From a virus, in the IMG/VR virus record IMGVR_UViG_3300010371_000075, positions 1 through 36,847 of that record: a stretch of 36,847 bases of DNA; one strand, written 5' to 3'. The notes below the pieces were generated by a model. That model searched no databases. It had not been told where the DNA came from and was given only the letters and a program-made list of their open reading frames with translations. The position numbers and the translations under genes were made by a program. Numbering within the stretch: position 1 is the first letter of the stretch; every line of letters starts with the position of its first letter. This document shows, piece after piece, positions 4,543 to 34,231 of this stretch.

Positions 4543-4734
4543 ATGATGCTCATGAGCCTCCTGCGTCTCTTCGTCGTCGGTCCGGCCGCCATCGCCATCG
4601 GCGTGCTTTTCGCGCTTGGCTTCGGTCTTGCGGGTGGCGTCGCAGTCGGCCTCTGCGTTCTGGCATGGCCGGCAGCTTGGGCCTTCGACGCTATTCGCCG
4701 CCGGCTACGACGTCACGGTTCCATGCCGCGTTGA
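4543..4734 (+). CDS. small two-span membrane protein on the opposite strand
   Basis: This 63-aa ORF is the only plausible plus-strand gene in the late region. It fills the gap between fibre and ejection genes. Two hydrophobic helices (residues about 8-30 and 32-50) with Gly-rich packing are followed by an arginine-rich tail (RRRLRRHG), a normal inside-positive topology. Codons are GC-ending like those of its neighbours. ATGs occur at 4543, 4546 and 4552, none with a strong ribosome binding site. It converges with and overlaps by 44 bases the 3' end of the segment read on the minus strand. It may be a moron or antiholin-like gene, or chance. Confidence 0.4.
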   Translation: MMLMSLLRLFVVGPAAIAIGVLFALGFGLAGGVAVGLCVLAWPAAWAFDAIRRRLRRHGSMPR

Positions 4735-5026
4735 ACGCCTTCTGGGCTTCGGCGCGCGTCTGCGCATGGGACCGAATCGAGGCATCGCGCTGCGCGTTGG
4801 GAATCAACGTCATGGGTGCCGCGGTGTAGGCGCTGCGGATCGCCTCGTTCTGGTCGCTCACCACCTTGCTCGCGGCCTTGTAGCGTCCGAACACGGCGGT
4901 CTCGTCAGCGACCACGATCTGCGGACGGCCGTCGGACACGATCACCTGGCCCGCCACGTGACCGTCGCGCGTCGTCTTGTACCGCTTGAAGTCCGCGCCC
5001 TTGAGCTCGGGTGAATCCTTGATCAT
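4691..5026 (-). CDS. C-terminal segment of the giant ejection protein, separated by an in-frame TAA
   Basis: From ATG 5026 this is 111 aa, but the same frame is open without a stop from 5107, directly after the TAA of the giant gene. The 27 codons before the ATG read as good protein (DRRETIERSLDKLRDTFERD) with GC-rich third positions, so the real unit is 138 codons continuing the upstream protein. I see no good ribosome binding site at 5026. It is most simply the orphaned C-terminus of a large polyvalent/ejection protein, lost by nonsense mutation or reached by read-through. It ends in TAG. Confidence 0.6.
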   Translation of the reverse strand: MIKDSPELKGADFKRYKTTRDGHVAGQVIVSDGRPQIVVADETAVFGRYKAASKVVSDQNEAIRSAYTAAPMTLIPNAQRDASIRSHAQTRAEAQKAFNAAWNRDVVAGGE

Positions 5027-5107
5027 GGCCAGCGCCGCCTGTTCGCCGTCACGCTCGAACGTGTCGCGCAGTTTATCGAGGCTGCGCTCGATCGTCTCGC
5101 GGCGGTC

Positions 5108-8100
5108 TTAGAACATCGCTTGCTGCGCGGCCTTGTCATCGACCGTCTTGGTGAAGCGGTTGACGATCGGAACGTCGCGCGATGTCACGGGCGCGTCGCC
5201 TGCCGCCATCTGGCCCAGCGTGGCCACGTCCACCACGAACTTGCCCGCGCCGCCGCCGAGCTTGTCCACGATGTACTGGATATCCTCGGGCGCCAGGTCG
5301 AACGCGCTCATGGGCGGCGGCGTGTAGTCGTCGCCACCGCCGATCCGGTTCAGTCCCTTGGACGCCACCTTGAAGATCTCCAGTGTGTCCGGGCGACCCA
5401 CGGTGGAGCGCGGCACATCGAACTTGCCGAACGGATTCTCTTTGCGGATCTGCCGGCCCCAATCATTGCGGTTGACTTGGATCGACAGCGGAATGCGCAG
5501 CGCAGTCGGCACCAAGCCGAGAGCGCCGTCGTCCAGCGGCACCGGCGAGAAGGACTGCACGCTCGCAGACATCACGTCTGCCGCGATCGCCATGCCGCTA
5601 TCCTGTGGCCGGTCCTCCCGGTGCATCATGGCATCGGTCACGCGGCCGGCCAGGTACGGCATGATGTTGAAGCCGTAGGGCATCGGGATCGTCAGCAGGT
5701 GCTGCTGGCCGCCGTCGTCCAGCCACGTGAACACCAGATTTCGCTGCTTCACGTAATCGGGAACCTTGTCCCAGATCGGCGTGCCGTCGTCGTCGTCCTG
5801 ACCCATGCCGTACATCACTGCGGCCACCTGCGCGGCAGCCAGCGCGCCCAGGTATGCCCACGTCTTGGGGTGCTTGGCCAGTGTCACCGTCCGTTTCGCG
5901 CCCTGCATCGAGGCATTGTAGAACAGCAGCCACGCATTGAGTTTCGAGCCGGCGTAGCCCTTGCGGTTGAAGTTGACCGTCATCTCCTTCGCGTAGGCGG
6001 CGGCCGCCTCGCGGCTCATGCCGCGCTTGCGCAGCGTCGCGTAGGCCGACAGGCGCAGGGCGTTCTCCACGCTGTCATTCATGGCACCGACCATGTCTGC
6101 AAGCGCGCGGCCGGCTCGGGCGATGCCGTGCGGGTTGTAGCTCCCCAGCCGGCCGTCGCCGATCTTGCGCGCCAGGTCCTCGACAGACGGCATGTGCACG
6201 TAACCCGTTTTCCCGCCGTCCTCGGCGAACTCACGCGCGAAGCGGTCGGCCTCGGTTGTCGGCGGTGCCCGGCGGGCCTCCTTCCATGCCGCACGAATAG
6301 CCTTCGGGTAGTACAGCGCCGCCTGCATGGCCGCCAGCTCGCCGTGCTCCACGCTCATGCCGGTCAGGCCGAACAGCGCGTCGCGCGCCGCGTTCACCGG
6401 GATGAAGGCCGGGTTGTAGCGCGTCAGCACCGACGAGAAGTAGCGGTTCAGCGCGCCGGCCGCCCGGGTCAATCCGCTCAGCTGGTCGACGCCGACCATG
6501 TTCAGCGCCTGCGCCAGCGGGGCAAAGTTGATCTGCACCTTGTAGACGTTCCCGCGGTGGCGCACAGCGATGATGGAGGGGTCGCTCCAGTCATGCACCA
6601 CGGCCTCGTAAACTTCGCCGGTAGCGTCCAGCTTGCGCTCGGTCTGCACCGGCTCCACCGACCACAGGGCGGGGTTCGGGTTGGCCAGTACCAGGCGCAT
6701 CACGGCGCGGCCCACACGCGCCTTCTCGCTGGCAATGATGCTGCGCTGCGCGTCGCCGATGATCTCGCCCAGGATGTTCTCGGCGCGGTTGCCGGCACCA
6801 CGGCCCAGCGCGTTCTTGACCGGCGAGGGTCGGGTGTCCAGGCCGCGCCCCGCACCCTGCGATGCGCCGTCGAACTCGTTCTCGCGCACCTGTTTTCCGC
6901 GCAGTGGCACATAGTGCTGATACTGCGCCTCCATCGCGTCGAACTGCTCCTGTGTGATCAGGCCGCTGTCCAGCAGCCGGCGACGCGTCTGGTGCGTCAA
7001 GGCATCCACACGACGCGCGAGCGGGGCCATGCGCGCCGTGTCGGCCCGGGCCAGGATCGCGTCCGCCTCGGCGTTCGTCATGCCGCTGCCGCCGTCCGGC
7101 ATGGCCGGGTTGATGCTGGCGATCTGGGCATTGCGCTCCTTGGCGTGGCGCGCGTAGAGGTATTCGTCCAGCTGCGCCGGCGTCACCTTGGCCCGATCCA
7201 TCGCCTGCACCAGCGGCACGATCCGGTCGGCCTCCAGCGCGTCGATGCCTTCCTTCACGCGGCCGTGCATCAGGTTTTCCAGCCGGTAGACGTTCTGGGC
7301 GTCGGGGATGGTCCGGCCCAGCGCCTCGGCGATGCTCCCTTGCACATCCCGCCATGCCAGCATCTTGTCGTCGAGCTGCGTGCGGGCGCGGCGCAGCGTG
7401 CCTTCGTTGCCCTCCCATTTGTGCGTGTCGAAGTTCCAGCCGATCGCCCCGCCGGCCGTGGGGCCGCCAAGCGTGCGTTGAGCCTCGGCCCGGCGCACAG
7501 CCGCATCGCTCCGCGCGTCTGCTGGCGTCCGGTGCGTGGTCGATTCGAGAATCGACGGACTGGACGGGTCGAAGGTGCCGCGGTTGCCGGTCTGATCCTC
7601 GGTCGAATCCAGCGCACTCTGCGGCTGGCCGATGGAGCCCTTGTTCTTCGCCGCCTGCCATGCCGCCTCCAGCAGGCTGCGCACGTCCTGGTCGGTGAAG
7701 ACGTGCTTGCCGAACAGGTCGTCGATCATCGCCTTGAGGCGGCGCAGGAAGTTGGCGATGGCCGCCTTCACGCTCTCACGGATGCCTGGCGGTACGTTCA
7801 CGCCATAGCGCTCGTTGATGTGCTCGTAGTTGCCGGTACGCACCGCGGCGGCCAGTTCCGCCAGCGCCTCCTCGGTCGCCAGCAGCACGCCATCGGCATG
7901 CGTCTTGCCGGACTTCTTCATCTGGTCGGCGATCTTGCGCTGCGCGTAAATCTCGTCCGCCAGGGCCTTCACGGTCGGGTTCTGGCGCGCGATGTTCAGC
8001 GCAGGATTGATCCGATCACCCAGCAGCGCGCGCAGGCCCTCATGTCCCGCGATCTCGTGCGCGGCATGCCATACGGCTCGCGCCGGCGTCTTGGTGACCT

Positions 8101-10684
8101 GAGTGAAGATGAACACCCGGCCGGTGTCGGGTGAGTACATCGCGGCCGTGACGCCCTTGCGGCCCAGCGCATTGCGCGACTCCACGCCCCTGCGCATCTT
8201 GTCCGGCAAGCCCTCGTAACCGTGCAGGTATTCCACGCGATCGGCCACCGGCCCCAGCGCCTCGCGCACGGCGGCGCGCAGGCCCAGGCGGTCGGCATCC
8301 TCGTTGCCGCGGGCAATCGAGCGCTGCCGCGGCTCGTCGGCGAAGTCGGTCAGCTTCGGTTCGTTGGTGCTGGCGCGACCGGCTTCGCCTTCGATGTCAA
8401 CCTGCTGCGGCCGGGGGCCGTCGAACAGGCCACCATCACCCGTGTCGGCGCGGCCACCGTTCAGGCCGTTTCGCTGCGCGTCCTTCGCCTCGATGGCCGC
8501 GCGGCTGTAGTCGCTGGACGTAGGCTCGGCGAACAAGCCGCGCTGGCTGGCTACCGGACGGGCGCCCTCGATGCTGGCGGCCGGCCGGTCGGCTTCGAGC
8601 TGGAAGCCTTGCGTGCTTTCGGCGACGCCGGAACCAGCGGCGGCAGGCCTTGCTTGATCCTGGCCAGCTCCGCCTTCACCACCGATCGGCGTTGCTCGGG
8701 TGTCAGTGCCACGGTTAGTCTCCTGATCTGCAATGTGCCGCGACAGCCGCCGGGCTTGCTCGGTCACCGAACCATCCCAGGTGGCGTCGATGATCTTCTC
8801 CGACGACACGCCGGCATCATGCGCTCGGCGCACCCATTGCGCCAGCGTCAGCGCCTCGCGATCGTCATCCCGCGACAGGTCGGCCTGGTGATCGCGAAGC
8901 TCCTGCACCGCTCGCACCCGGTCAGCCTCAGCCATGTCGGCCTGATCCTGCTCGAACTGCGCTCGGTCAGCTTCATACGCGTCGTCATATTGCTTGGCGA
9001 CGCCCCGAGCATAGTCGATGAACCGCCGTTCCTTGGCGTTCAGCGACTGCCCAGCGGCATACTTGTCCAGCGCCACGTGGGCCTGCTTCTCGCTGATCTT
9101 GCCGCCCTGCTCTGGACGCATGCGCCAGAAGTTCGATTCACCGTCCGGGCCAGGCTTGCCCACCCACGGCGTGCGGCCGATGACCTCGCCCGATGTGCGA
9201 CCGAAACTCGCGCCAGAGGAAATATCACCGTCAACCTCGCCGCCGCGGATCATCTGGCCACCGCGGGTTTCCCAGCCGATCTCGTTGCGCAACGCCTCGA
9301 CCGAGGCGCGGTCGTCCACCAGCGGTGTGGGCTCCGGCACCACGGGCGCGGCAGCTTCCGGTGCCTGCATCGGTGCCGCTGGCGTCGGTGGTGCGCCCTG
9401 CGCCGCTTCGGTCGCCACCCGCGCCCGGTCCATCGCCGCGCGCACGTCCGCCGGCGTCATGGCGCCAGCCTGCGGCATCTGCGGTGCCACGGCCTCGCCA
9501 AGGCTGGCGGGAGCTGCAGCGGCCGGCGCTTCCACCTGCTGAGGCACAGGCGCCGGCTCGGGCGCCGTATCGGCGCGGCCGGCCAGCAGCGCGGCCAACA
9601 TGGTGTCCAGGTCGTCGGGTGCCGGAGCGGCCTCGACAGGCGCGGCAACGGCAGGAGTACTCGTCGATGCCAGCGGTTCGACTACTTGCCCCGGCAGAGG
9701 CGGCGGCGTGCCGGCGGTGCGGCCGGTGAGTGCCGACACCATCTCGGGAACGTTGATCGCCACATGACCGCCGCCACCCAGCGCGCCGCCCACCACGGCC
9801 GCATCCAGTGCGCCGAGCAACTGATCCTTGATCGACGTTTGGTTGCCGGTGGCCTGGTCGTCGATGTACTGCTGCATCAACTGGGTCAGTCCTTCCTGGC
9901 CGCCTTCCGTCGCGACCGCGCGGCGCAGCGTGCCAGCACCAGCCTTGCTCATGATGGCCGGCAGGCCGATCGACTCGCCGATCTTCTCGGTGGCGCCCGT
10001 CAACGCGCCCGCGGCGGCCGCCTCGCGACGCGGCACACCCTGGCTGCGAAGGTCGGTGTATTCCTGCGCGCCGGTGGCCGCGCCCATCATTGCGCTACCC
10101 AGCTCGGGGTTCCGCGTGGCCAGTGCCAGCGCCAGCATCGGGAGGGATTCGGCGCCGGTGTTGCCGTAGTAGGCCGCCGCCTTGCGGACGCCCTCGACCG
10201 GGTTGGTGACCAAGTCGCCCAGCCCTGGCCGCGGGGTTTCGGCCTGCGCACCTTGGCGATCCGCGTTGATCTGCTTTTCCACGGCAAGCGACTGCGCCGC
10301 AACCTTGTCCGCCCCCAGCGGGTTGTCGCCGTAGAGCATCCGCGTGGGCAGCATCGCCTGGTCCACGACATCGGCGCCCGTGTGCAGAGTGGACGCCAGC
10401 GCCGATGCACTGCCGCGCTTGATCGCGTTCCAGAGGTTCGCACCTCCCAGCCCTTCGACCACCGGAGCGACCGGGTCGCGAGCCAAATTCGCCAGCCCCA
10501 TGGCACCCGCACCCAGGCGCTGCAGCAGGCTCGGAGCCTCGGTCGGCGGTGGCGTGGCGCTGCCTTGTGCATCAGGCGACCCGGTAGAGGCGAACGGGTC
10601 GTAATCGACCGGCGTCAGCTTGCGTGCAGGCGCAGGGGCGGCGGCCGCGAACGGGTCGAAGTCAACCGGGGTGAGGGTCGCCAT
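5108..10684 (-). CDS. giant virion/ejection protein with polyvalent-protein domains
   Basis: Probably packaged in the head and injected with the DNA. The 1858-aa product starts with two copies of LTPVD(F/Y)DPFA, then Ala/Pro-rich and Gly-rich helical stretches. A zincin-like motif HEIAGHEGLR sits near residue 875, of the HExxGHxGLR type seen in phage polyvalent proteins. Charged helical regions follow, then a hydrophobic segment near residue 1605 (WAYLGALAAAQVAAVMYGMG) in a C-terminal region resembling the polyvalent-associated domain LPD38. ATG 10684 lies 2 bases after the previous stop, so it is preferred over 10708. It ends at TAA 5108-5110, but the frame continues. Peptidase activity is inferred. 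Confidence 0.78.
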   Translation of the reverse strand: MATLTPVDFDPFAAAAPAPARKLTPVDYDPFASTGSPDAQGSATPPPTEAPSLLQRLGAGAMGLANLARDPVAPVVEGLGGANLWNAIKRGSASALASTLHTGADVVDQAMLPTRMLYGDNPLGADKVAAQSLAVEKQINADRQGAQAETPRPGLGDLVTNPVEGVRKAAAYYGNTGAESLPMLALALATRNPELGSAMMGAATGAQEYTDLRSQGVPRREAAAAGALTGATEKIGESIGLPAIMSKAGAGTLRRAVATEGGQEGLTQLMQQYIDDQATGNQTSIKDQLLGALDAAVVGGALGGGGHVAINVPEMVSALTGRTAGTPPPLPGQVVEPLASTSTPAVAAPVEAAPAPDDLDTMLAALLAGRADTAPEPAPVPQQVEAPAAAAPASLGEAVAPQMPQAGAMTPADVRAAMDRARVATEAAQGAPPTPAAPMQAPEAAAPVVPEPTPLVDDRASVEALRNEIGWETRGGQMIRGGEVDGDISSGASFGRTSGEVIGRTPWVGKPGPDGESNFWRMRPEQGGKISEKQAHVALDKYAAGQSLNAKERRFIDYARGVAKQYDDAYEADRAQFEQDQADMAEADRVRAVQELRDHQADLSRDDDREALTLAQWVRRAHDAGVSSEKIIDATWDGSVTEQARRLSRHIADQETNRGTDTRATPIGGEGGAGQDQARPAAAGSGVAESTQGFQLEADRPAASIEGARPVASQRGLFAEPTSSDYSRAAIEAKDAQRNGLNGGRADTGDGGLFDGPRPQQVDIEGEAGRASTNEPKLTDFADEPRQRSIARGNEDADRLGLRAAVREALGPVADRVEYLHGYEGLPDKMRRGVESRNALGRKGVTAAMYSPDTGRVFIFTQVTKTPARAVWHAAHEIAGHEGLRALLGDRINPALNIARQNPTVKALADEIYAQRKIADQMKKSGKTHADGVLLATEEALAELAAAVRTGNYEHINERYGVNVPPGIRESVKAAIANFLRRLKAMIDDLFGKHVFTDQDVRSLLEAAWQAAKNKGSIGQPQSALDSTEDQTGNRGTFDPSSPSILESTTHRTPADARSDAAVRRAEAQRTLGGPTAGGAIGWNFDTHKWEGNEGTLRRARTQLDDKMLAWRDVQGSIAEALGRTIPDAQNVYRLENLMHGRVKEGIDALEADRIVPLVQAMDRAKVTPAQLDEYLYARHAKERNAQIASINPAMPDGGSGMTNAEADAILARADTARMAPLARRVDALTHQTRRRLLDSGLITQEQFDAMEAQYQHYVPLRGKQVRENEFDGASQGAGRGLDTRPSPVKNALGRGAGNRAENILGEIIGDAQRSIIASEKARVGRAVMRLVLANPNPALWSVEPVQTERKLDATGEVYEAVVHDWSDPSIIAVRHRGNVYKVQINFAPLAQALNMVGVDQLSGLTRAAGALNRYFSSVLTRYNPAFIPVNAARDALFGLTGMSVEHGELAAMQAALYYPKAIRAAWKEARRAPPTTEADRFAREFAEDGGKTGYVHMPSVEDLARKIGDGRLGSYNPHGIARAGRALADMVGAMNDSVENALRLSAYATLRKRGMSREAAAAYAKEMTVNFNRKGYAGSKLNAWLLFYNASMQGAKRTVTLAKHPKTWAYLGALAAAQVAAVMYGMGQDDDDGTPIWDKVPDYVKQRNLVFTWLDDGGQQHLLTIPMPYGFNIMPYLAGRVTDAMMHREDRPQDSGMAIAADVMSASVQSFSPVPLDDGALGLVPTALRIPLSIQVNRNDWGRQIRKENPFGKFDVPRSTVGRPDTLEIFKVASKGLNRIGGGDDYTPPPMSAFDLAPEDIQYIVDKLGGGAGKFVVDVATLGQMAAGDAPVTSRDVPIVNRFTKTVDDKAAQQAMF

Positions 10685-10686
10685 GC

Positions 10687-11526
10687 TCAACCATCCACCC
10701 GCAGCCATTTTCCGGGGCGGTTCGGGTCGGGCACGTAGAGGTTGCCATCCGGTGCGCGGCGCGGCTCCACGGCAGCAGCCGGATGGCCCGGCGCCGCCGC
10801 AGCGGGCGCGCCGCCCGCGTCGCCACTGAAGATGTGGGTCAGCATGTCCACGAGAGGCGCCATGTTGACGGTCGGCTTGGCATCGGGCTTGCTGTTCTTG
10901 CGGTGCACGCCGGCCATCGCATCCGAGTTTCGGGCGCGGGCACGCGCCGCTACGGCACTGGCATTCGACGCGTCAGCCCGCGCGCCTTTCGCCATGATGT
11001 CGGCCAGGCCGACCTGCGTCGGCGTGTTGCCCCCCACCGCCGCCTGCTGGTCCGGCGTCACCATCGCACTGAGCAGCGTACCGTCCTGGATCGTGGAAAG
11101 GTTGACCGGCCTGCCGCTGCGCACCATGTTGATGCGGTTGAGCAGGTTCAGGTCGGCGTCGGGCGCCGTGGCCACTTCCATCGCCCGGTTCCCGAAGCCG
11201 ATGCCCTGCTGATCCTTCTGGTAGCCGGAGAGTTCGCGCGGGTCAATGCCGGCATGCAGCAGGCCGTTCACCAGCTGACCCTGCAGGGAATCCATGGCCT
11301 CCGGCACGAAGGCCTGGCCGGTGACAGGGTCGCGACCCGATACCACGCTGCCGACCAGTTCGGGCGTGATGCTCTGCAGGCCCATGTTCTTGTCGCGCTT
11401 CGTGCGCGCGTCCTCGAGCAATCCCGCCTGCCGCGAGCCGGCCTGATAGCCAGCCATCGCCAGCTTCTGGCGCTGCAGCGAATCACCGCCAGCCAGTGCC
11501 GCACCCAGTTCACTCCATCCGCTCAT
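10687..11526 (-). CDS. putative internal virion / DNA-ejection protein
   Basis: Product of 279 aa. Helical, Ala/Gly/Gln-rich N-terminus (SELGAALAGGDSLQRQKLAMAGYQAGSRQAGLLEDARTKRD), a middle part of polar helices, and a Pro/Ala-rich C-terminus ending in NLYVPDPNRPGKWLRVDG. No catalytic motif and no membrane segment. Such proteins are typical just upstream of the giant ejection protein in short-tailed phages, hence the call; I do not recognise a named family. It is separated by 2 bases from the next gene and by 12 from the previous one. Confidence 0.6.
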   Translation of the reverse strand: MSGWSELGAALAGGDSLQRQKLAMAGYQAGSRQAGLLEDARTKRDKNMGLQSITPELVGSVVSGRDPVTGQAFVPEAMDSLQGQLVNGLLHAGIDPRELSGYQKDQQGIGFGNRAMEVATAPDADLNLLNRINMVRSGRPVNLSTIQDGTLLSAMVTPDQQAAVGGNTPTQVGLADIMAKGARADASNASAVAARARARNSDAMAGVHRKNSKPDAKPTVNMAPLVDMLTHIFSGDAGGAPAAAAPGHPAAAVEPRRAPDGNLYVPDPNRPGKWLRVDG

Positions 11527-11538
11527 AGATCGGTTTCC

Positions 11539-12198
11539 TCAACTCTTGAACGGCATGTTCACGCGGAAGCCGTTGCCGGCGTCGTAGATGTCGCCGGTGC
11601 CATTCATCTGGCCACTGCCACCACCACCACCGCCCGCCCCGCTCGCTCGCGCCATGCCGTAGGCGCGTGCGCCATCGGCCACCGCGGTCAGCCACGGATT
11701 GGGCCGGATCGCCTGCAGACGCATCTGCGAGAGGAACTGGTCGGCAGCCGATCGGCGCTTGATCTCGTTGAGGTCGGAGCCGTAGCGCGACAGGTTGGCG
11801 GCCTCGGCCTGGCGCTGCAGCGACGGCGCGTCGATCGCGCTGAGCAGGCCGGCATTGGAGGCGCCGTAGTTGCTGATCCCCAGCGCGGCATCATTCGCCG
11901 CCTTCGTGTAGGCGCCCGACACGTTACCGACCTGGGCCAGCGGCCGCACGGCGTTCGGGTTTTCTGCCCTCAGCTTGGCCATGAACTGGTCGAGCAGGTT
12001 CGACTTTGCGGCATCTGGCGAGGACTGCGCGGTCTTCTGGATCAGTTGCTGCGTCTGCTGATTTTGCTGTTGCTGCAGGCCGTACTGCTGGCGCAGCTGG
12101 CGGGCCAGCTCGCTGTCCTGACGGCGGGCAACCTGGCGGTTGTTCGCATAGGTGGCGGTCGCAGCGAGGATGGTGGTTCCCACGGCTACCCAAGACAT
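11539..12198 (-). CDS. putative internal virion protein
   Basis: Product of 219 aa. The N-terminus (SWVAVGTTILAATATYANNRQVARRQ) is weakly hydrophobic and could insert in membranes during ejection. A Gln-rich helix follows (LRQQYGLQQQQNQQTQQLIQ), then a helical core and a Gly-run linker before INGDIYDAGNGFRVNMPFKS-like C-terminal residues. This layout is common in podovirus ejection proteins. It overlaps the upstream cupin-like gene by 13 bases, a sign of tight co-translation. The function is inferred from order and composition. Confidence 0.58.
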   Translation of the reverse strand: MSWVAVGTTILAATATYANNRQVARRQDSELARQLRQQYGLQQQQNQQTQQLIQKTAQSSPDAAKSNLLDQFMAKLRAENPNAVRPLAQVGNVSGAYTKAANDAALGISNYGASNAGLLSAIDAPSLQRQAEAANLSRYGSDLNEIKRRSAADQFLSQMRLQAIRPNPWLTAVADGARAYGMARASGAGGGGGGSGQMNGTGDIYDAGNGFRVNMPFKS

Positions 12199-12623
12199 GG
12201 CGTTTCCCCTTCCGCCATTGGCGGCAGTACATCGCTGGGGTCGACAATGTCGGCCTCGGCCGTTTCCAGATCCTGCGCGTCACACACCACGGTCGTGGAC
12301 CAGATCACGTCAGTTAGCGCGACGGCGACGCGCTTCGTACCCGGCGGCGAGACAACGACCTCCGGGCCCGTCAGCTCGACGATGCCAGCCTCGGTGGAAA
12401 CAGCGATCGTCCCGGACACGAGCACGTTGTGCTGCCCCTTGCGGTGCTTCTTGCCCGTGAGGGCGGTACCGGCCGGGATCAGGATCACGCGCGTCACCAT
12501 GCCGTGCCCGAAGAAGGTCTGTGCCGGGATGCACGCCTGCGGACACTGCGCAATCGCCGCCTCGAATGCCTTCACGGCTTCTGGCGACGGGTGACGAGGC
12601 AAGGTCAGGTCCGAACCATCCAT
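12186..12623 (-). CDS. cupin-like virion-region protein
   Basis: Product of 145 aa with a beta-rich core typical of a small cupin barrel: VTRVILIPAGTALTGKKHRKGQHNVLVSGTIAVSTEAG, with PAG, H-K-GQHN and SGT turns, then PEVVVSPPGTKRVAVALTDV. The His residues in HRKGQH could bind metal, but the full cupin metal set is not obvious. Similar proteins occur among the ejection genes of podoviruses, where their role is unknown. It overlaps the upstream gene by one base (TGATG) and the downstream gene by 13. Confidence 0.6.
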   Translation of the reverse strand: MDGSDLTLPRHPSPEAVKAFEAAIAQCPQACIPAQTFFGHGMVTRVILIPAGTALTGKKHRKGQHNVLVSGTIAVSTEAGIVELTGPEVVVSPPGTKRVAVALTDVIWSTTVVCDAQDLETAEADIVDPSDVLPPMAEGETPCLG

Positions 12624-18362: not shown

Positions 18363-18758
18363 TTACTCGGCGTCGCCTTCCGCAGCTTCGGCCTTTGCCT
18401 TGCTCTTGCCGCCGGTCTTCTTGCCGCCGACGCGTTCCTCGGCCGCCTGCTTGCGCACCGCGGCGTCGTCGCCCTGCTCGTACGGCAGGCCGCTGTTCCG
18501 GGCCAGCGCACGCACCGAGCTCAAGGCGCGGCGCACCGCGTCGGGGTGGCCGCTGTACTTGGACTGCAGCCGCGCGTACTCGGTCGCGGCCGTACGCTCG
18601 CCGGCGTCCATCTCATGGTCGCCGGACTCGATGACGTCGTCCTCGCCGTGGATCTCGCGCAGGACCGCCACCTCGTATTCCGGCACGTCGAACGGAATGC
18701 CAAGGCCTTCGCGCTGGATCGTGCCGGTGACGAAGACCAGCTTCGCCGGGCCGCTCAC
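18363..18758 (-). CDS. small head-region protein, unknown
   Basis: The 131-aa product has a beta-rich start (GPAKLVFVTGTIQREGLGIPFDVPEYEVAVLREIHGEDDVI), a helical middle (TEYARLQSKYSGHPDAVRRALSSV) and a Lys/Ala-rich tail (GGKKTGGKSKAKAEAAEGDAE) typical of phage structural or nucleic-acid-contacting tails. The start is GTG at 18758, overlapping the previous TGA as GTGA. It ends in TAA, which shows that TAA is a normal stop in this genome. The position between head decoration and adaptor suggests a head-completion role. Confidence 0.62.
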   Translation of the reverse strand: MSGPAKLVFVTGTIQREGLGIPFDVPEYEVAVLREIHGEDDVIESGDHEMDAGERTAATEYARLQSKYSGHPDAVRRALSSVRALARNSGLPYEQGDDAAVRKQAAEERVGGKKTGGKSKAKAEAAEGDAE

Positions 18759-19102
18759 TGCACACCTTCCAGGCTGATCGTGGCGGTGCCGGTGCCGGCG
18801 GTGGTGACGTTCACCCGAACCCACAGCGGCACCTCGATTTCCTGACGCAGGTCGGAAGCACTGGTCAGGCTGACGATGTCGGTCCAGTTGGCATCGGAAC
18901 TGCCCGGTGCCGCCGGGCCAGCGGTCGGGTTGCCCTGAATCTTCACGACGCCCGAGCCGCCGATGGCGGCCTTGAGCGCGAGGAAGGCGTTCTTGCCCTG
19001 CCCGCCCGCGAAGGGCGACTTGTTGCAGAGGATGGGGGTCTGCGCGCCGGTGGACGTGATGTCCAGTGCGGTGGCGAGGGCCAAGGTCATAGCTTTGCTC
19101 AT
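18755..19102 (-). CDS. putative head decoration / stabilisation protein
   Basis: The 115-aa product follows the coat protein gene, the usual place for decoration proteins. It is beta-rich: LALATALDITSTGAQTPILCNKSPF, GQGKNAFLALKAAIGGSGVVKIQGN, then EIEVPLWVRVNVTTAGTGTATISLEG. Similar small proteins follow the coat gene in other podoviruses of GC-rich hosts, as far as I recall, but none with known structure that I can name. A good ribosome binding site (GAGAAGGA) precedes ATG 19102. Confidence 0.62.
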   Translation of the reverse strand: MSKAMTLALATALDITSTGAQTPILCNKSPFAGGQGKNAFLALKAAIGGSGVVKIQGNPTAGPAAPGSSDANWTDIVSLTSASDLRQEIEVPLWVRVNVTTAGTGTATISLEGVQ

Positions 19103-19118
19103 GGTTTCCTTCTCCGTC

Positions 19119-19140
19119 GCCGGCTACCAAGGCAGCCGGC
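19119..19140 (-). other. hairpin between coat and decoration genes
   Basis: GCCGGCT and AGCCGGC form a 7-bp stem with an 8-base loop in the 55-base gap. No T tract follows, so it is more likely an mRNA-stability or processing element than a terminator. Confidence 0.45.
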
Positions 19141-19157
19141 GTGGTAGTGGTTGACGG

Positions 19158-20390: not shown

Positions 20391-21557
20391 TCAATCGCGC
20401 TGCAGCGATTTCAGGCCAGCCTCGAAGGCCTCCATATCGTTCTTCGGTTTCTGGCGCATGGACAGGTTGCCGCCGGTCGGCCGCACCGGCATATGCGAGA
20501 CCGGAACGCGAGGTGCAGGTGCAGGCGCCGGAGCGGGCGCCGCGGCAGGAAGTGTTGGCAGCTTGCGATAGGCGCGCTCGATCTTGTCCTTCCACTGCGA
20601 CGGGTGGACCGTCTCGCGGATCACGTCGAGCGTCGGTTGCAGCAGGGCAAGCTTCCGCGCGAAGTCCGGGTCCGTGGCCTTGAGCTGGTCATTCAGTGCG
20701 GTGATGTCGGTGATCGCCTGATTCAGCGCGGCTTGGTGTTGATCCTGCTGTGCGCGCGTGGTCTCGCGAGTTTCGACCACCGTCGAGGTGGCACGCTGCG
20801 CGGCAATTTCCAGCGCGCGTTTGCGGCTGATGTCGCCGTTGTTCACCTCTTGCAGCAGATCAGCGTGTGCCTCCAAGGGGTCGACGAGGCCAGGCACCTC
20901 CCGGCCGAGCCGGCGCCCCAGGTTCACCACCTCGCCCAGCATCGCGTCGAAGGCGGCGTTCTGCATCTTCGGGTCGTCCGAGTTCATCGCCTTGATGACG
21001 TTCAACGCGGAACCGAACTGCTCCGGGGTGGCGGTCGAGGCGAGAACCGTGTCCTCCCACTCCTGCGCGCGCTGCGCGCTCTCGATAACCTGCTCGATGC
21101 GGCTCGCATCGGTAATCTGGTGCTTCGCCAACGCCTCGCGCAGCGGGGTCAACTCCTTCACCTGACTGGTGAGCTCGCGGAAGCGCTCCTCGGCGCGGCC
21201 TTTCAGACCCAGCTCCTTCACGGCCTGATCGGTCTCCGCATCCGGCTCGGGAGCGGGTGCCGGCGCTGCGGCCGGAGCGGGGGCAGCCGCGGCAGGCTTG
21301 CCATCCGCGGCGGCCTCGGCCACGACGTCAGCGGCGGTCTTCGGCGCGCCGTCTCCGGCCAAGGTGGCCAGGCCCTTGTCGAACGCGGCCAGGTCAACCT
21401 GTTCGCGGTCGACGGCTGGCGTCGGTTCGCCACCATCCTCGCCTGCAGGCTGGCCGCCATCGGTGGGCGTGGTGCCGGCATCGGCAGCGGTTTGGTCGCC
21501 GGCAGGCAGATCGGTCGGCGTGTTATCGGGTGCGGTGGCGTCGGTAGCGGTAGTCAT
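20391..21557 (-). CDS. capsid scaffolding protein
   Basis: The 388-aa product is highly charged and helical, with no enzyme motif. It has a Thr/Asp/Pro-rich N-terminus, Ala/Pro runs (residues about 85-105), and long predicted coiled coils (KGRAEERFRELTSQVKELTPLREALAK). After a second Ala/Pro linker comes a short basic C-terminus (SMRQKPKNDMEAFEAGLKSLQRD) of the sort scaffolds use to bind coat protein. It lies between portal and coat as in P22-like podoviruses. ATG 21557 overlaps the portal stop (ATGA). Confidence 0.8.
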   Translation of the reverse strand: MTTATDATAPDNTPTDLPAGDQTAADAGTTPTDGGQPAGEDGGEPTPAVDREQVDLAAFDKGLATLAGDGAPKTAADVVAEAAADGKPAAAAPAPAAAPAPAPEPDAETDQAVKELGLKGRAEERFRELTSQVKELTPLREALAKHQITDASRIEQVIESAQRAQEWEDTVLASTATPEQFGSALNVIKAMNSDDPKMQNAAFDAMLGEVVNLGRRLGREVPGLVDPLEAHADLLQEVNNGDISRKRALEIAAQRATSTVVETRETTRAQQDQHQAALNQAITDITALNDQLKATDPDFARKLALLQPTLDVIRETVHPSQWKDKIERAYRKLPTLPAAAPAPAPAPAPRVPVSHMPVRPTGGNLSMRQKPKNDMEAFEAGLKSLQRD

Positions 21558-23986
21558 GCAGGCTCTCCTTCGGGGTTCGGTTCGAACGGAATGTCCGGGG
21601 TGGCAGGCAATGGCGGCAGCGCGACCGGCGAGGCATGCGGCGCATCCACCTGGGTCGGCGGATCGCCCGGCTGCGGCAGCGCGCCGCTGACCATCGCGTC
21701 CACCAGATCCTCGGGCAGCGTGGGTGCGCTGGCATGGATCAGCGCCACAGCTGACGCGGGGGTGATGACCTTGCCCCGCACGTCGGCGAGCACGGCGGTC
21801 AACGCCTGAATCTGCGGGCCAGACAGCGTCGTGTCCTGCAGCGGCGGACGATGCGGCTCGGGCGGCGGTGGCGGCGTGCGCGGCGCATCGGGGATGAACT
21901 GCTCAGCGTCCAGCCGATCTCCCATGCGGGAGACGGTCTCCACGACCAGCGCCACGATGCACGACGCGATCTCCTCGGGCGACGATCCGCGCAGCTGCCC
22001 GATGGTCTGGATCGCCTCGCGCAGCTGCGGCAGGAGCGTTGCCCACGCTTGACGCTTGGCGGCGGTGTCGGGTTTGCCAGAGGAGCCGGCCGTGATCGAC
22101 ACGGTCACCAATGCGCTCATGTCCTCGATCGTCATGTCCTCGGGCCACAAGGCCCATGGCCCGGCGATCTCCTGCACGTCCTCCTGGCTGAGCGTCGTCA
22201 GCGCAACCTCGGCGGTGTAGTGCGCCAGCTCGCCGAGCATCTCGTCCAGATCGTCGCGCATGTAGTTCTGCCGCGACTCGGTGCCCTGCTGCTGGATCTC
22301 CGCTTCGCCGAGTGTCTTGGCGGTGCGGATCGAGGATGACAGCGCCTCCTGGATGCCCCAGATCATTTCCAGATCCGCGAGGATGGCGCGGGTGTCGTAG
22401 AGCGCCATGTCGACCGGTGGGTACTGGATGTTCACCACGGACTTGCTGATGTCGTCACCGGGACGCACGGGCTTGAGCGGCACCATCTCGACGTGGGTGG
22501 CGCCTTCTAGCTTGGCGATCTCATCGGGCGAGTAGTTGGTCGCATCGAAGCCAGATTTCGGGATCACGCGCCGCCGGTGCTTGCGGTAGTTGCTGCGGAT
22601 CGAGTTGTATTCGTCCAGCAGGCGCTCCGATCGGGTGATCAGCGAACGCCCATGCCGATCGCCGTCGACGTGGCCGATCTGGTACTGGAATAACGGGTAG
22701 AAGCGGCTGGTCGCCGGACGCGGCGGGAACGGCGGCTTGGCGTAGCAGTCCATGCCCTCGAAGAACGTGATCACGTTGCTGCTCGTGCGGTCCCATACCT
22801 CCCACAGACACACGAACTGCATGCCTCCGGTCTGCATGGTGCCTTTGCGGTAGGCGTCGGCATCAGCCGGGTCAGTGCTGGTGGCCATGGCTCCGCTGTC
22901 GCCGGCCTGTTCGCTGTCGCGCGGTTTCTGCGGGTAGTAGGCGGCGGCCGTGCGCAGCTTGTCGGCGATCTGGGGGTGATCCTGCTTGGCCTGGTCGATC
23001 GTCATGAACACGCGATGCGCGATCCACGACGCATCGAGATACGCCGTCAGGTCCCGGCAGTCGGTGGAGACCTGGATGTCCTCGCCGGCCACGAAGTCGA
23101 TCGCGAACCCACGCGCCACGACGATCTCGACCTTTGCCTCCAGTGCCTGCGCCTGTCGCTCCAGCTCGGCGCGCACCTGGTCGTCGTCTGGTGCCTCGCC
23201 ATCGTCCAGTTCCTTGCGCAGTGCCGCCATGCGCGCGAGGTTGTCCTGAATGTCGTTCAGCTGGATCGCGATCTCCGGGTCTTCGCCCTTGCGCTCCAGC
23301 CATACCGCCTTGAGCCAACCGATCGAGATGGTGAGACTTGAGCCCACCAGCGGCTTGGCCTGTTTCTTGAGCTTGGCCTTCTTCCACAGCGTCGACACCA
23401 CCAACTCCAGCGTGCTGGAGAACTGCTCAGCGTTCTCGCGCAGGCGCTGATAGGGCTCCAGCAGCTTGGCTGCCTCCTGTTTGAGCATTGCGTCGGTGAT
23501 CTCGCTTTGCTGCGCCGGCGACGCCTGTGCACCAGGCAGGGCGGGTGACGGTGCCGGGCCGCCCTGGGTCCCCAGCAGCCGCGCGATCGCCTGCGGCATG
23601 GCCGGTGCCGTGACCTGATCACCGGCCTGCATCTGCTTGGCCACCATCGCCATGATCGCCTTCTGCGGTGGCGGCTCGGTCAGGCCAGAGGGCGTCACGC
23701 TCACGTCCGGGTCCTGCGCGTACAGGAACGAGCGCAGCACGTCGATGTAGCTCTGCGCGATCGGCACGTCGACCTCGAAGTGCGTGCGGTCGGCGCGCGC
23801 GTACTTCCGGTCGCGGGCGTAGCGCTTGCGCGCGTACTTGTCGAACTCGCGCGCCTCCTCGATGGCCTTCTGCCACGCCTTCACGTCCGCGCATTCGCGG
23901 GCGTAGGCCTGTTGATCCTCGCCCTGATAGTCGGCGTTCGCGGCCTGGATGCCCTGCTCCAGCGGCTGGGTTTCTTCGATCGTCAT
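21554..23986 (-). CDS. portal protein
   Basis: Dodecameric ring at the packaging vertex. The 810-aa product has the size and style of P22-type portals: N-terminal helices (KAWQKAIEEAREFDKYARKRYA), VDVPIAQSYIDVLRSFLYAQDPDVSVTP, a wing-like region, and the conserved centre YPLFQYQIGHVDGDRHGRSLI-TRSERLLDEYNSIRSNYRKH. After it come VVNIQYPPVDMALYDTRAILADLEMIWGIQEALS and a Pro-rich C-terminal tail. ATG 23986 is chosen; upstream in-frame sequence is overlap with terL. It follows terL by 10 bases and overlaps the scaffold gene by ATGA. Confidence 0.85.
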   Translation of the reverse strand: MTIEETQPLEQGIQAANADYQGEDQQAYARECADVKAWQKAIEEAREFDKYARKRYARDRKYARADRTHFEVDVPIAQSYIDVLRSFLYAQDPDVSVTPSGLTEPPPQKAIMAMVAKQMQAGDQVTAPAMPQAIARLLGTQGGPAPSPALPGAQASPAQQSEITDAMLKQEAAKLLEPYQRLRENAEQFSSTLELVVSTLWKKAKLKKQAKPLVGSSLTISIGWLKAVWLERKGEDPEIAIQLNDIQDNLARMAALRKELDDGEAPDDDQVRAELERQAQALEAKVEIVVARGFAIDFVAGEDIQVSTDCRDLTAYLDASWIAHRVFMTIDQAKQDHPQIADKLRTAAAYYPQKPRDSEQAGDSGAMATSTDPADADAYRKGTMQTGGMQFVCLWEVWDRTSSNVITFFEGMDCYAKPPFPPRPATSRFYPLFQYQIGHVDGDRHGRSLITRSERLLDEYNSIRSNYRKHRRRVIPKSGFDATNYSPDEIAKLEGATHVEMVPLKPVRPGDDISKSVVNIQYPPVDMALYDTRAILADLEMIWGIQEALSSSIRTAKTLGEAEIQQQGTESRQNYMRDDLDEMLGELAHYTAEVALTTLSQEDVQEIAGPWALWPEDMTIEDMSALVTVSITAGSSGKPDTAAKRQAWATLLPQLREAIQTIGQLRGSSPEEIASCIVALVVETVSRMGDRLDAEQFIPDAPRTPPPPPEPHRPPLQDTTLSGPQIQALTAVLADVRGKVITPASAVALIHASAPTLPEDLVDAMVSGALPQPGDPPTQVDAPHASPVALPPLPATPDIPFEPNPEGEPA

Positions 23987-23996
23987 GGCGGTGGCC

Positions 23997-25613
23997 TCAG
24001 TCGTAGTAGCGTTTGCGTCGGGCTGCTTCGCGTGCATCCTCGCGATACAGCCCCTCGATGTGCCGGCGGGTGAAAGGTTCAACGCGGTCGCGATCGTCCG
24101 CGTCGTCGTCAGCATCGCCTTCCAGCAGCAGATCCAGCGCGCGTCCGATCAGGCTGCAGCAGTCGACCTTGTCGTCGTAGCGCGCGGCGGGGAAGCTCAC
24201 CAGCTGCTCGATCAGAGCATCGCCCCAGATGCCATCGCGCACGTGCACGGTGCGGGCGCTCACGCGACCCAAAAAACCCTGCGCACGCGCAAGCTTGTCG
24301 GCGATGCTCGGCAGCAGGTGGCGCGCGGCGTAGGACTTCTTGCGGCGCATCGCACGACGCACCTCGGGGCCGATCGCGGACTCGATCACGCCGGACTCGC
24401 CGAACCACAGGATCGGCTTCCAGGTCTTGATCAGGCTGCAGGCGGCAGAGACCGACTTGTCCGTCGTGACTTGCCCGCTCCACCAGTCCAGCACCCAGAT
24501 GTCGCCTTCCTCGTCGATGCCGAAGATGCCGTGTTCAGTGAAGTCCGGGTTGTTTCCCTTTTGTCCGGCCGCGGCCTTGATCCTTTCCTTGGCGGCGAAG
24601 TCGCTGGCCATGTAGACCTTGAGCCGTTCGCGCTCGGGCGCACGGCTGAAACGCAGGAAGTCCGCCTTCTTGAAGTGGATGCCCTCGGCTGGCGCCGGAC
24701 GCTGCTGGTACAGGCTCGACCACGTGCGCGCGTTCGCCTGGTACATCCGCCAGTGGCGCTCGCTGAACCACTCCGGCCACATGTACTCGCCGATCTCCCG
24801 CCCAAGCGGATCGTCGGTGCGCTCGCACTGCGCCGGGATGCTCAGGACTTCCCACACCTGGCCATCACGGCATTCGACCGGACCGCTGCGGCCGTCGTAG
24901 TCCTCGGGCAGGATGCCGCCAGCCAGATCATCTTGGTGCCAGCGGGTCAGGATCATGATGATCGAGGCCTTCGGCTTGAGGCGGGTCAGGAAGTCGTCGT
25001 CGTAGGCGGCGCGGGTCTTGGCGCGGATGGTCTCGGATTCCGCTTCCTCGCGGCCGGCGACCGGGTCGTCGATGATGCCTAGGTCGCAGCGGCTGGACGT
25101 GATGCCGCCCAGCAGACCGGCGGCGTACAGGCCCGAGCCGTTGGTCAGCTCCCACTCGTCCGCCGCCTTGCTGTCGCCGACCAGGCGCGTGTCCTGCGGC
25201 CAGATGCTGGTGTATTCCGGACTGGCCACGATCTGCCGCGCTTTCTTGCTGGCGCGGATGATCGGCGTGCCGGAGTAGCTGGTCATCAGCACGCGCAGCC
25301 CGGGAAAAGCACCCATCGCCCACGTCGGCGCGACCACACTGCCATAGGTGGACTTCGCAGAGCCCGGTGGCTCGCAGATGATCAGGCGACCGTAGTCGGT
25401 GCGGATGCATCGCTCGATCGCTTCCATCGTGACGATGTGATGCTTCGCCACGTGCGTCTCGATCGGCTTGAACAGCCACTCGTCCGCGTCCTCGCTCACC
25501 GGCGCGCCGGGGATGGTTATGGCCTGGCTGAACTCCACGAGCGACTGCCGCGCCCGCTGGCGGCGCAGCAACTCGCGAGCGGCCTGCGTCGGCGTGAGGT
25601 TGCCGTCAGCCAT
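23997..25613 (-). CDS. terL: terminase large subunit
   Basis: Packaging motor and nuclease. The 538-aa product has an ATPase domain with Walker A CEPPGSAKST (residues 80-89), an adenine-binding region upstream, Walker B CDLGIIDDP with acidic residues at 182-183, and a coupling motif near MILTRWHQDD. The C-terminal nuclease domain shows ASDFAAKERIK with the first acidic residue and a late acidic cluster ARYDDKVDCCSLIGRALDLL. This is a full-length, apparently intact enzyme. It overlaps terS by 8 bases. Confidence 0.93.
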   Translation of the reverse strand: MADGNLTPTQAARELLRRQRARQSLVEFSQAITIPGAPVSEDADEWLFKPIETHVAKHHIVTMEAIERCIRTDYGRLIICEPPGSAKSTYGSVVAPTWAMGAFPGLRVLMTSYSGTPIIRASKKARQIVASPEYTSIWPQDTRLVGDSKAADEWELTNGSGLYAAGLLGGITSSRCDLGIIDDPVAGREEAESETIRAKTRAAYDDDFLTRLKPKASIIMILTRWHQDDLAGGILPEDYDGRSGPVECRDGQVWEVLSIPAQCERTDDPLGREIGEYMWPEWFSERHWRMYQANARTWSSLYQQRPAPAEGIHFKKADFLRFSRAPERERLKVYMASDFAAKERIKAAAGQKGNNPDFTEHGIFGIDEEGDIWVLDWWSGQVTTDKSVSAACSLIKTWKPILWFGESGVIESAIGPEVRRAMRRKKSYAARHLLPSIADKLARAQGFLGRVSARTVHVRDGIWGDALIEQLVSFPAARYDDKVDCCSLIGRALDLLLEGDADDDADDRDRVEPFTRRHIEGLYREDAREAARRKRYYD

Positions 25614-33334: not shown

Positions 33335-34231
33335 ATGAGCCTGAAAATCACGAAAGCCGCCGAACCCATCGCCGTCGAGCGCCTGAACCTGTGCCTGTAC
33401 GCACAACCCGGTATCGGCAAGACCTCGCTGGCGTTCACCGCCGACGCGCCGCTGCTGCTGGACTTCGACCAAGGGGCGCACCGCGCCGCTAACCGCAAGG
33501 ACGTGGTGCGCGTCGCGCATTGGGGCGACGTCGCCGGTATCAGCGCGGACGACCTGGCGCCGTACCGCACGATCATCGTCGACACGGCCGGCCGTGCGCT
33601 GGACACGCTCACCGCCGACATCATCCGCCGCAACCCCAAGGCGGGCCGCGGTGGTGCCCTTACGCTGCAGGGATACGGCACGCTCAAGGCCGAGTTCGTC
33701 GCGTGGCTCAAGCTGCTGAACAGCCTGGGCAAGGACGTGATCCTGATCGCCCACATGGACGAGCAGCGCAACGGCGACGAGATCATCGAGCGCCTGGACG
33801 TGCAGGGCGGCAGCAAGGGCGAGATCTACAAGGCTGCCGATGCGATGGGTCGGATTGCGATCCGCGACGGCGCCCGCGTACTGAACTTCTCGCCCACGGA
33901 TGCCGCGTTCGGCAAGAACCCGGGCCAGCTCGACCCGCTGGTCATCCCGCACAAGGACGCACCGGAGTTCGCGGACTTCCTTGCGGGCGTCGTGCAGCAG
34001 ATCAAGGATCGGCTCAACGCGCTCACGGAAGACCAGCGGGCCGCGCAGGCGGTCATGGAGCACTGGCGAGTCACCATCGGCGACCTCGCCGAGCTGTCCG
34101 ACTTCAACGGCACGCTCGACGCGATCAAGGAAGCCCCGAAGGCGGCGCAGGCGCTGTTCAACAAGGCGGCTACGGATCGCGGGTTCGCCTTCGACAAGAA
34201 GGCCGGCGCCTACATCGAGCAGGCCGCGTGA
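33335..34231 (+). CDS. Sak4-like RecA-type ATPase, putative recombinase
   Basis: The 298-aa product has Walker A YAQPGIGKTS (residues 22-31) and Walker B RTIIVD (Asp83). Further family marks are LLLDFDQGAHR, GYGTLKAEFVAWLKLL, DVILIAHMDEQRNGD and QGGSKGEIYKAADAMGRI. This is the AAA_24/Sak4 type found in phage recombination modules, likely acting on single-stranded DNA in annealing or strand exchange. The C-terminal third (from about 225) is helical. It precedes a PD-(D/E)XK nuclease, the usual partner, here separated by an HNH gene. GAGG before ATG 33335. Confidence 0.83.
   Translation: MSLKITKAAEPIAVERLNLCLYAQPGIGKTSLAFTADAPLLLDFDQGAHRAANRKDVVRVAHWGDVAGISADDLAPYRTIIVDTAGRALDTLTADIIRRNPKAGRGGALTLQGYGTLKAEFVAWLKLLNSLGKDVILIAHMDEQRNGDEIIERLDVQGGSKGEIYKAADAMGRIAIRDGARVLNFSPTDAAFGKNPGQLDPLVIPHKDAPEFADFLAGVVQQIKDRLNALTEDQRAAQAVMEHWRVTIGDLAELSDFNGTLDAIKEAPKAAQALFNKAATDRGFAFDKKAGAYIEQAA

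What the first reader, a model, noticed from the sequence alone, without database searches (positions are those of the whole stretch)
4691..10684. A single in-frame TAA separates the giant ejection protein from 138 further codons
Seen: the frame of the 1858-aa gene stops at TAA (5108-5110) and stays open in the same frame from 5107 to a TAG at 4691-4693. The first 27 codons after the TAA have GC-ending codons and helical sequence (AAQQAMF*DRRETIERSLDKL), and no ribosome binding site precedes the first ATG (5026). A Tyr codon (TAC/TAT) at this place would need one base change to give TAA. TAA ends other genes here (18363, 26790, 35908), so it is not reassigned genome-wide. Options: nonsense mutation in a decaying prophage, read-through producing about 1997 aa, use of a suppressor tRNA, or a sequencing error.
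Basis: partly seen in the sequence, partly recalled or inferred. Interest (0 to 1): 0.82.

Follow-up and report, generated by a model that had tools for sequence, protein, structure and literature searches.

The report
Premature stop in phage polyvalent protein
One phage genome carries a premature stop codon in place of a nearly always conserved tyrosine near the end of a giant phage-particle-type protein; the 138 codons behind it are the protein's true, still intact end, so this is most likely an ordinary recent nonsense mutation (or a base-call error), not a new way of reading genes.

Summary
A TAA (5108-5110, minus strand) ends an 1858-aa frame, and 138 codons follow in frame to a TAG at 4691-4693. 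Relatives settle what the tail is. In 166 relatives whose LPD38-type C-terminus was found, each holds it in one open frame; only the window is split. At the TAA column 146 of 164 relatives have Tyr, none has a stop, and a median of 95 further residues follow. The two nearest relatives read FY-DR and YY-ER where the window reads F*-DR. The tail shows no clear decay: codon-position GC, pN/pS and window-only changes match the upstream part. No other virion gene comparable with those relatives is split. The window has no tRNA gene, no restart site after the TAA, no unusual downstream RNA fold, and no TAA beside 219 Tyr codons in 19 genes. I conclude: a derived single-codon nonsense change in a polyvalent virion-protein gene, too recent for decay, or a base-call error. 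True mutation is judged likelier, but reads or same-species genomes are needed. Programmed read-through, suppression and recoding are unsupported.

The parts
5111..10684 (-). main frame of the polyvalent virion protein, 1858 aa as cut by the TAA; LPD38 domain near its end
   Evidence: translation; PF18857 LPD38 E 1.1e-26 at residues 1646-1849 of the 1866-aa frame from the alternative ATG 10708, above the gathering score; phrog_14770 E 2.1e-136, whose profile continues about 98 positions past the match
5108..5110 (-). in-frame TAA at the place of a near-invariant Tyr
   Evidence: Tyr in 146 of 164 relatives with a residue at this column, no stop in any; TAC in L002
4694..5107 (-). 138 codons of the protein's own C-terminus, now behind the stop
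   Evidence: 58% identical to the G002 (L004) tail and 50% to the G001 (L002) tail, both inside single open frames of more than 2000 codons; upstream-like codon bias and pN/pS
4691..4693 (-). TAG, the stop at the end of the full-length frame
   Evidence: the two nearest relatives' proteins end at the same aligned residue

Best explanation
The 1858-aa frame and the 138-codon tail are one gene, coding for an LPD38-type large polyvalent protein of a tailed phage. In this genome one codon, which in nearly all relatives encodes Tyr, has become TAA by mutation. The change is derived, confined to this record as far as the data reach, and too recent for the tail to have decayed. The predicted effect is a protein cut inside a long helix, losing its C-terminal helical bundle (last 139 residues including the Tyr). 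The cut protein is probably impaired in folding or in being packaged or ejected, so this copy is likely defective unless the tail is dispensable. Shown: one continuous gene in relatives, Tyr at the site, undecayed tail. Inferred: a true mutation rather than a base-call error, and the functional effect.
For: All 166 relatives in the census carry the C-terminus in one frame and only the window is split. The TAA column is Tyr in 146 of 164, ranks 51st of 622 well-filled columns for conservation, and is followed by a median of 95 residues. Nearest relatives L002 (2362 aa) and L004 (1927 aa) run through without a stop. The tail has the same codon-position GC as upstream (0.67/0.47/0.86 against 0.65/0.44/0.86). 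pN/pS of window to L004 is 0.46 in the tail and 0.46-0.50 upstream. The split of window-only changes between codon positions 1+2 and 3 does not differ from upstream, p 0.44 and 0.45. In the AF2 model of the L004 C-terminus (mean pLDDT 84) the Tyr (331) lies in helix 322-351, in a stretch with block pLDDT of about 84-97 (position).
Against: A single differing base in one assembled record could be a consensus error. There are no reads, and no same-species sequence was found. With the nearest relatives only about 63-65% identical over the C-terminal 780 residues, the tests for decay are weak. In one comparison (outgroup L098) the window tail has more lineage-specific changes than L004 (19 to 5, p 0.007), though the last 138 codons before the stop lean the same way (27 to 13) and other outgroups show no excess.
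Confidence: 0.62

Rival explanations
1. Sequencing or assembly error: the phage encodes a sense codon (most likely Tyr) and makes the full 1997-aa protein; the TAA is a miscalled base in the consensus.
For: Only one base distinguishes TAA from a Tyr codon; the tail shows no clear decay; no other virion gene comparable with the two relatives is split; no broken copy was seen among 159 relatives whose frame end is present.
Against: Consensus base errors in well-covered assemblies are rare (general knowledge); nothing in the sequence around the site (no homopolymer, no junction: homology runs through on both sides) points to one. Coverage is unknown.
Confidence: 0.28
2. Stop-codon read-through or a suppressor tRNA makes both an 1858-aa and a 1997-aa form.
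For: The tail is intact and keeps coding signals after the stop.
Against: No relative has a stop there, so there is no conserved recoding site; no stable structure after the TAA, z -0.11; no tRNA gene in the window; UAA is the stop read by both bacterial release factors and is generally the least leaky (general knowledge); 219 Tyr codons and no TAA in 19 genes. The intact tail is equally expected from a recent mutation or an error.
Confidence: 0.06
3. The shortened protein is functional and the tail is being lost or is expressed as a separate protein.
For: The tail is poorly conserved in sequence and varies in length among distant relatives, so parts of it may be dispensable.
Against: A tail of at least 49 residues follows in all 159 relatives whose frame end is present; no start codon with a binding site after the TAA, the first ATG being an internal Met; the cut falls inside a confidently predicted helix at a conserved Tyr.
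Confidence: 0.04

Closest known systems
LPD38 large polyvalent proteins of phages (PF18857; Iyer et al. 2017, PMC5512222)
   Same: LPD38 near the C-terminus, giant protein encoded among head and tail genes, match to the C-terminal part of phrog_14770 and phrog_616
   Different: here the last 138 codons are cut off by a TAA; relatives have one frame
Phage N4 virion RNA polymerase gp50 (as described in PMC5512222)
   Same: giant virion polyvalent protein whose C-terminal region is needed for encapsidation; a model for what the lost C-terminus could do
   Different: no polymerase domain was detected here; homology to gp50 was not tested
Phage P1 DarB antirestriction protein
   Same: phrog_10089 (DarB-like antirestriction) matches with its best stretch at residues 909-1273, E 2.2e-17
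   Different: methylase and helicase domains of DarB were not detected in the Pfam scan

Membership tests
LPD38 large polyvalent protein | LPD38 domain above the curated cut-off | tested here: met
   PF18857, 94.5 bits against a cut-off of 27
LPD38 large polyvalent protein | gene near virion genes of a phage | tested here: met
   terminase, major head protein, internal virion protein and tail matches on the same strand
LPD38 large polyvalent protein | continuous C-terminal tail after LPD38 (a property of the relatives seen here, not part of the Pfam definition) | tested here: not met
   TAA splits it in the window only
LPD38 large polyvalent protein | packaged in the virion and ejected | not testable with these tools
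   inferred from context (PMC5512222)
nonsense mutation (derived premature stop) | relatives have a sense codon at the site and an intact frame | tested here: met
nonsense mutation (derived premature stop) | present in the real genome, not a base-call error | not testable with these tools
   no reads; no same-species record found
programmed stop-codon read-through | stop conserved in relatives with coding on both sides | tested here: not met
   no relative has a stop at the site
programmed stop-codon read-through | stimulating RNA structure after the stop | tested here: not met
   z -0.11
genome-wide reassignment of TAA | repeated in-frame TAA at conserved sense positions | tested here: not met
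   none among 8294 codons of 19 genes

The most novel reading that the evidence does not exclude
In this phage lineage the TAA is a fixed, functional site: leaky reading (perhaps by a host or phage ochre-suppressing tRNA outside the window) sets the amount of full-length against C-terminally shortened polyvalent protein in the virion.
Probability: 0.04. Interest if true: 0.75.

Novelty: new member of a known kind. Interest (0 to 1): 0.18.

Why it matters
As it stands it is an ordinary premature stop in one record, useful mainly as a caution: a single suspicious stop in a metagenomic phage should be checked against relatives and reads before read-through is proposed. A by-product of some use is the family census: LPD38 proteins almost always keep a tail of roughly 80-180 residues that starts at a near-invariant Tyr and lies beyond the Pfam match (which ends 17 residues before that Tyr here), so the tail is worth testing as a packaging or ejection part.

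Tried and rejected
Separate downstream gene: rejected, no relative has one and there is no start site. Whole-genome recoding of TAA: rejected. Structured read-through element: rejected. Search for same-species copies to date the mutation: phage records by DNA and viral-contig scans gave nothing, the tail scan only L002, the first genome scan nothing, and 797 genomes of two orders only one chance-level hit each, E about 7e-4 and 1e-3. PDB fold search of the C-terminus: no match at E 0.001 or better; the BFVD matches below E 0.001 that carry a name are mostly polyvalent or uncharacterised phage proteins. Profile search of solved structures: one weak hit, E 0.33, not trusted.

Full report
Observation. 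The minus-strand frame from ATG 10684 runs 1858 codons to TAA 5108-5110, then stays open for 138 codons to TAG 4691-4693. The first ATG after the stop (5026) has no ribosome-binding site.

What the gene is. The protein matches PF18857 (LPD38, large polyvalent protein associated domain 38) at E 1.1e-26 close to the TAA, and phrog_14770, phrog_616 and phrog_10691 at E 1e-70 or better. In each of these three PHROG profiles the match stops 95-112 positions before the profile's end, the first hint that the protein normally continues. Around it on the same strand lie terminase, major head protein, tail and internal virion protein genes. Iyer et al. [quoted passage not shown] they describe the C-terminal region of N4 gp50 as required for encapsidation. 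A virion role for this protein is an inference from that context.

Relatives. A scan with the tail alone found L002 (IMGVR_UViG_3300037742_000022), and a scan with an alignment found L004 (IMGVR_UViG_3300009986_000005). Both have one continuous frame, 2362 and 1927 aa, through the site. The window reads AAQQAMF*DRRETIERSL, L004 AAQAAMFYDRRETIDRSL, L002 AAQQSLYYERSDALNRSL. Wider scans added 160 loci from genomes and viral contigs, and annotated phages of Vibrio, Ruegeria, Burkholderia and Escherichia also have single genes that run on past this point.

Census. I built a profile without the window and searched all six-frame open frames of the fetched loci. It matched 166 relatives and the window. 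Each relative holds the match in one frame; the window alone needs two. In a MAFFT alignment of these, the TAA column has Tyr in 146 of 164 relatives with a residue there and no stop. Several of the 18 others have a Tyr one place earlier, as an alignment shift would give. A median of 95 residues follows. Seven relatives run off their contigs; of the other 159 none ends at the site, the shortest having 49 residues beyond it. With 0 of 159, the upper 95% bound on a C-terminus broken here is about 2% in these collections. The sample is the best hits of a few scans plus phage records and is not independent of phylogeny; 136 remain when C-termini more than 80% identical are removed.

Age of the stop. 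GC by codon position in the tail (0.67, 0.47, 0.86) equals that of the last 138 codons before it (0.65, 0.44, 0.86). Nei-Gojobori pN/pS for window and L004 is 0.46 in the tail, 0.50 in the last 138 codons and 0.46 further up; for the intact pair L004 and L002 it is 0.53 in the tail. Changes unique to the window fall at codon positions 1+2 against 3 as 35:21 in the tail, 30:25 and 123:94 upstream (Fisher p 0.44 and 0.45; against L004-unique changes in the tail, 28:34, p 0.067). Of the relative-rate tests on the tail, one (outgroup L098) shows an excess on the window side (19:5, p 0.007), but the region before the stop leans the same way (27:13), and outgroups L002 and L117 show none (20:15, 9:8). 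The length differences of the tail from its two nearest relatives are whole codons. The tail therefore shows no clear decay, which fits a recent mutation, an error or read-through alike; at this divergence the test cannot exclude a modest time without function.

Against special decoding. There is no tRNA gene in the window, no TAA but 183 TAC and 36 TAT among 8294 codons of 19 well-supported genes, no unusual RNA fold in the 120 bases from the TAA (z -0.11), and no stop at this place in any relative. TAA probably ends the gene at 18363-19157, though that frame's codon bias is only moderate; the 35908 example is weak.

Is the rest of the phage decaying? A six-frame comparison with the two relatives shows collinear virion genes at roughly 30-65% identity and no other virion gene split in the window. 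Regions without a counterpart in those records could not be judged.

What the cut removes. An AlphaFold2 model of the L004 C-terminus (473 aa, 49 sequences, mean pLDDT 84, pTM 0.72) puts the Tyr (331) in the helix 322-351, followed by helices 404-428 and 437-472, with block pLDDT mostly above 90 in these helices (position). The TAA thus cuts the first helix near its start and removes the C-terminal helical bundle. No solved structure resembles it convincingly; predicted structures of other polyvalent phage proteins do.

Verdict. A derived nonsense codon in one gene is well supported (about 0.9 taking true mutation and base-call error together). True mutation against error cannot be separated without reads; I put true mutation at 0.62 and error at 0.28, a judgement and not a computed figure. 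Read-through, suppression or a functional short form share the rest.

Noticed in passing
window 5120-8134 and 8222-10738, + strand: Long open frames (1004 and 838 aa) lie opposite the polyvalent gene; they are probably shadows of its GC-rich third positions, since they match the relatives only antisense to the conserved gene.
   Followed up: partly
window 21554-24115 and 23997-25613, - strand: The 853-aa frame (possibly the portal, no PHROG match) starts 119 bases inside the end of the terminase frame; its true start may lie further downstream.
   Followed up: no
window 33335-34231, + strand: A Sak4-like single-strand annealing protein (phrog_124, E 6.6e-43) is encoded on the strand opposite to the virion genes.
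   Followed up: no
window 12186-12623, - strand: A short tail fibre or adhesin-like protein (phrog_12032, E 1.6e-30), 145 aa, lies among the genes upstream of the polyvalent protein; it shows no match in the two nearest relatives' records.
   Followed up: no
L098 (IMGVR_UViG_3300008267_000168): Another relative (61% to L004 over the C-terminus) in a 43.5-kb contig, with an intact open frame of 2347 codons through the site.
   Followed up: partly
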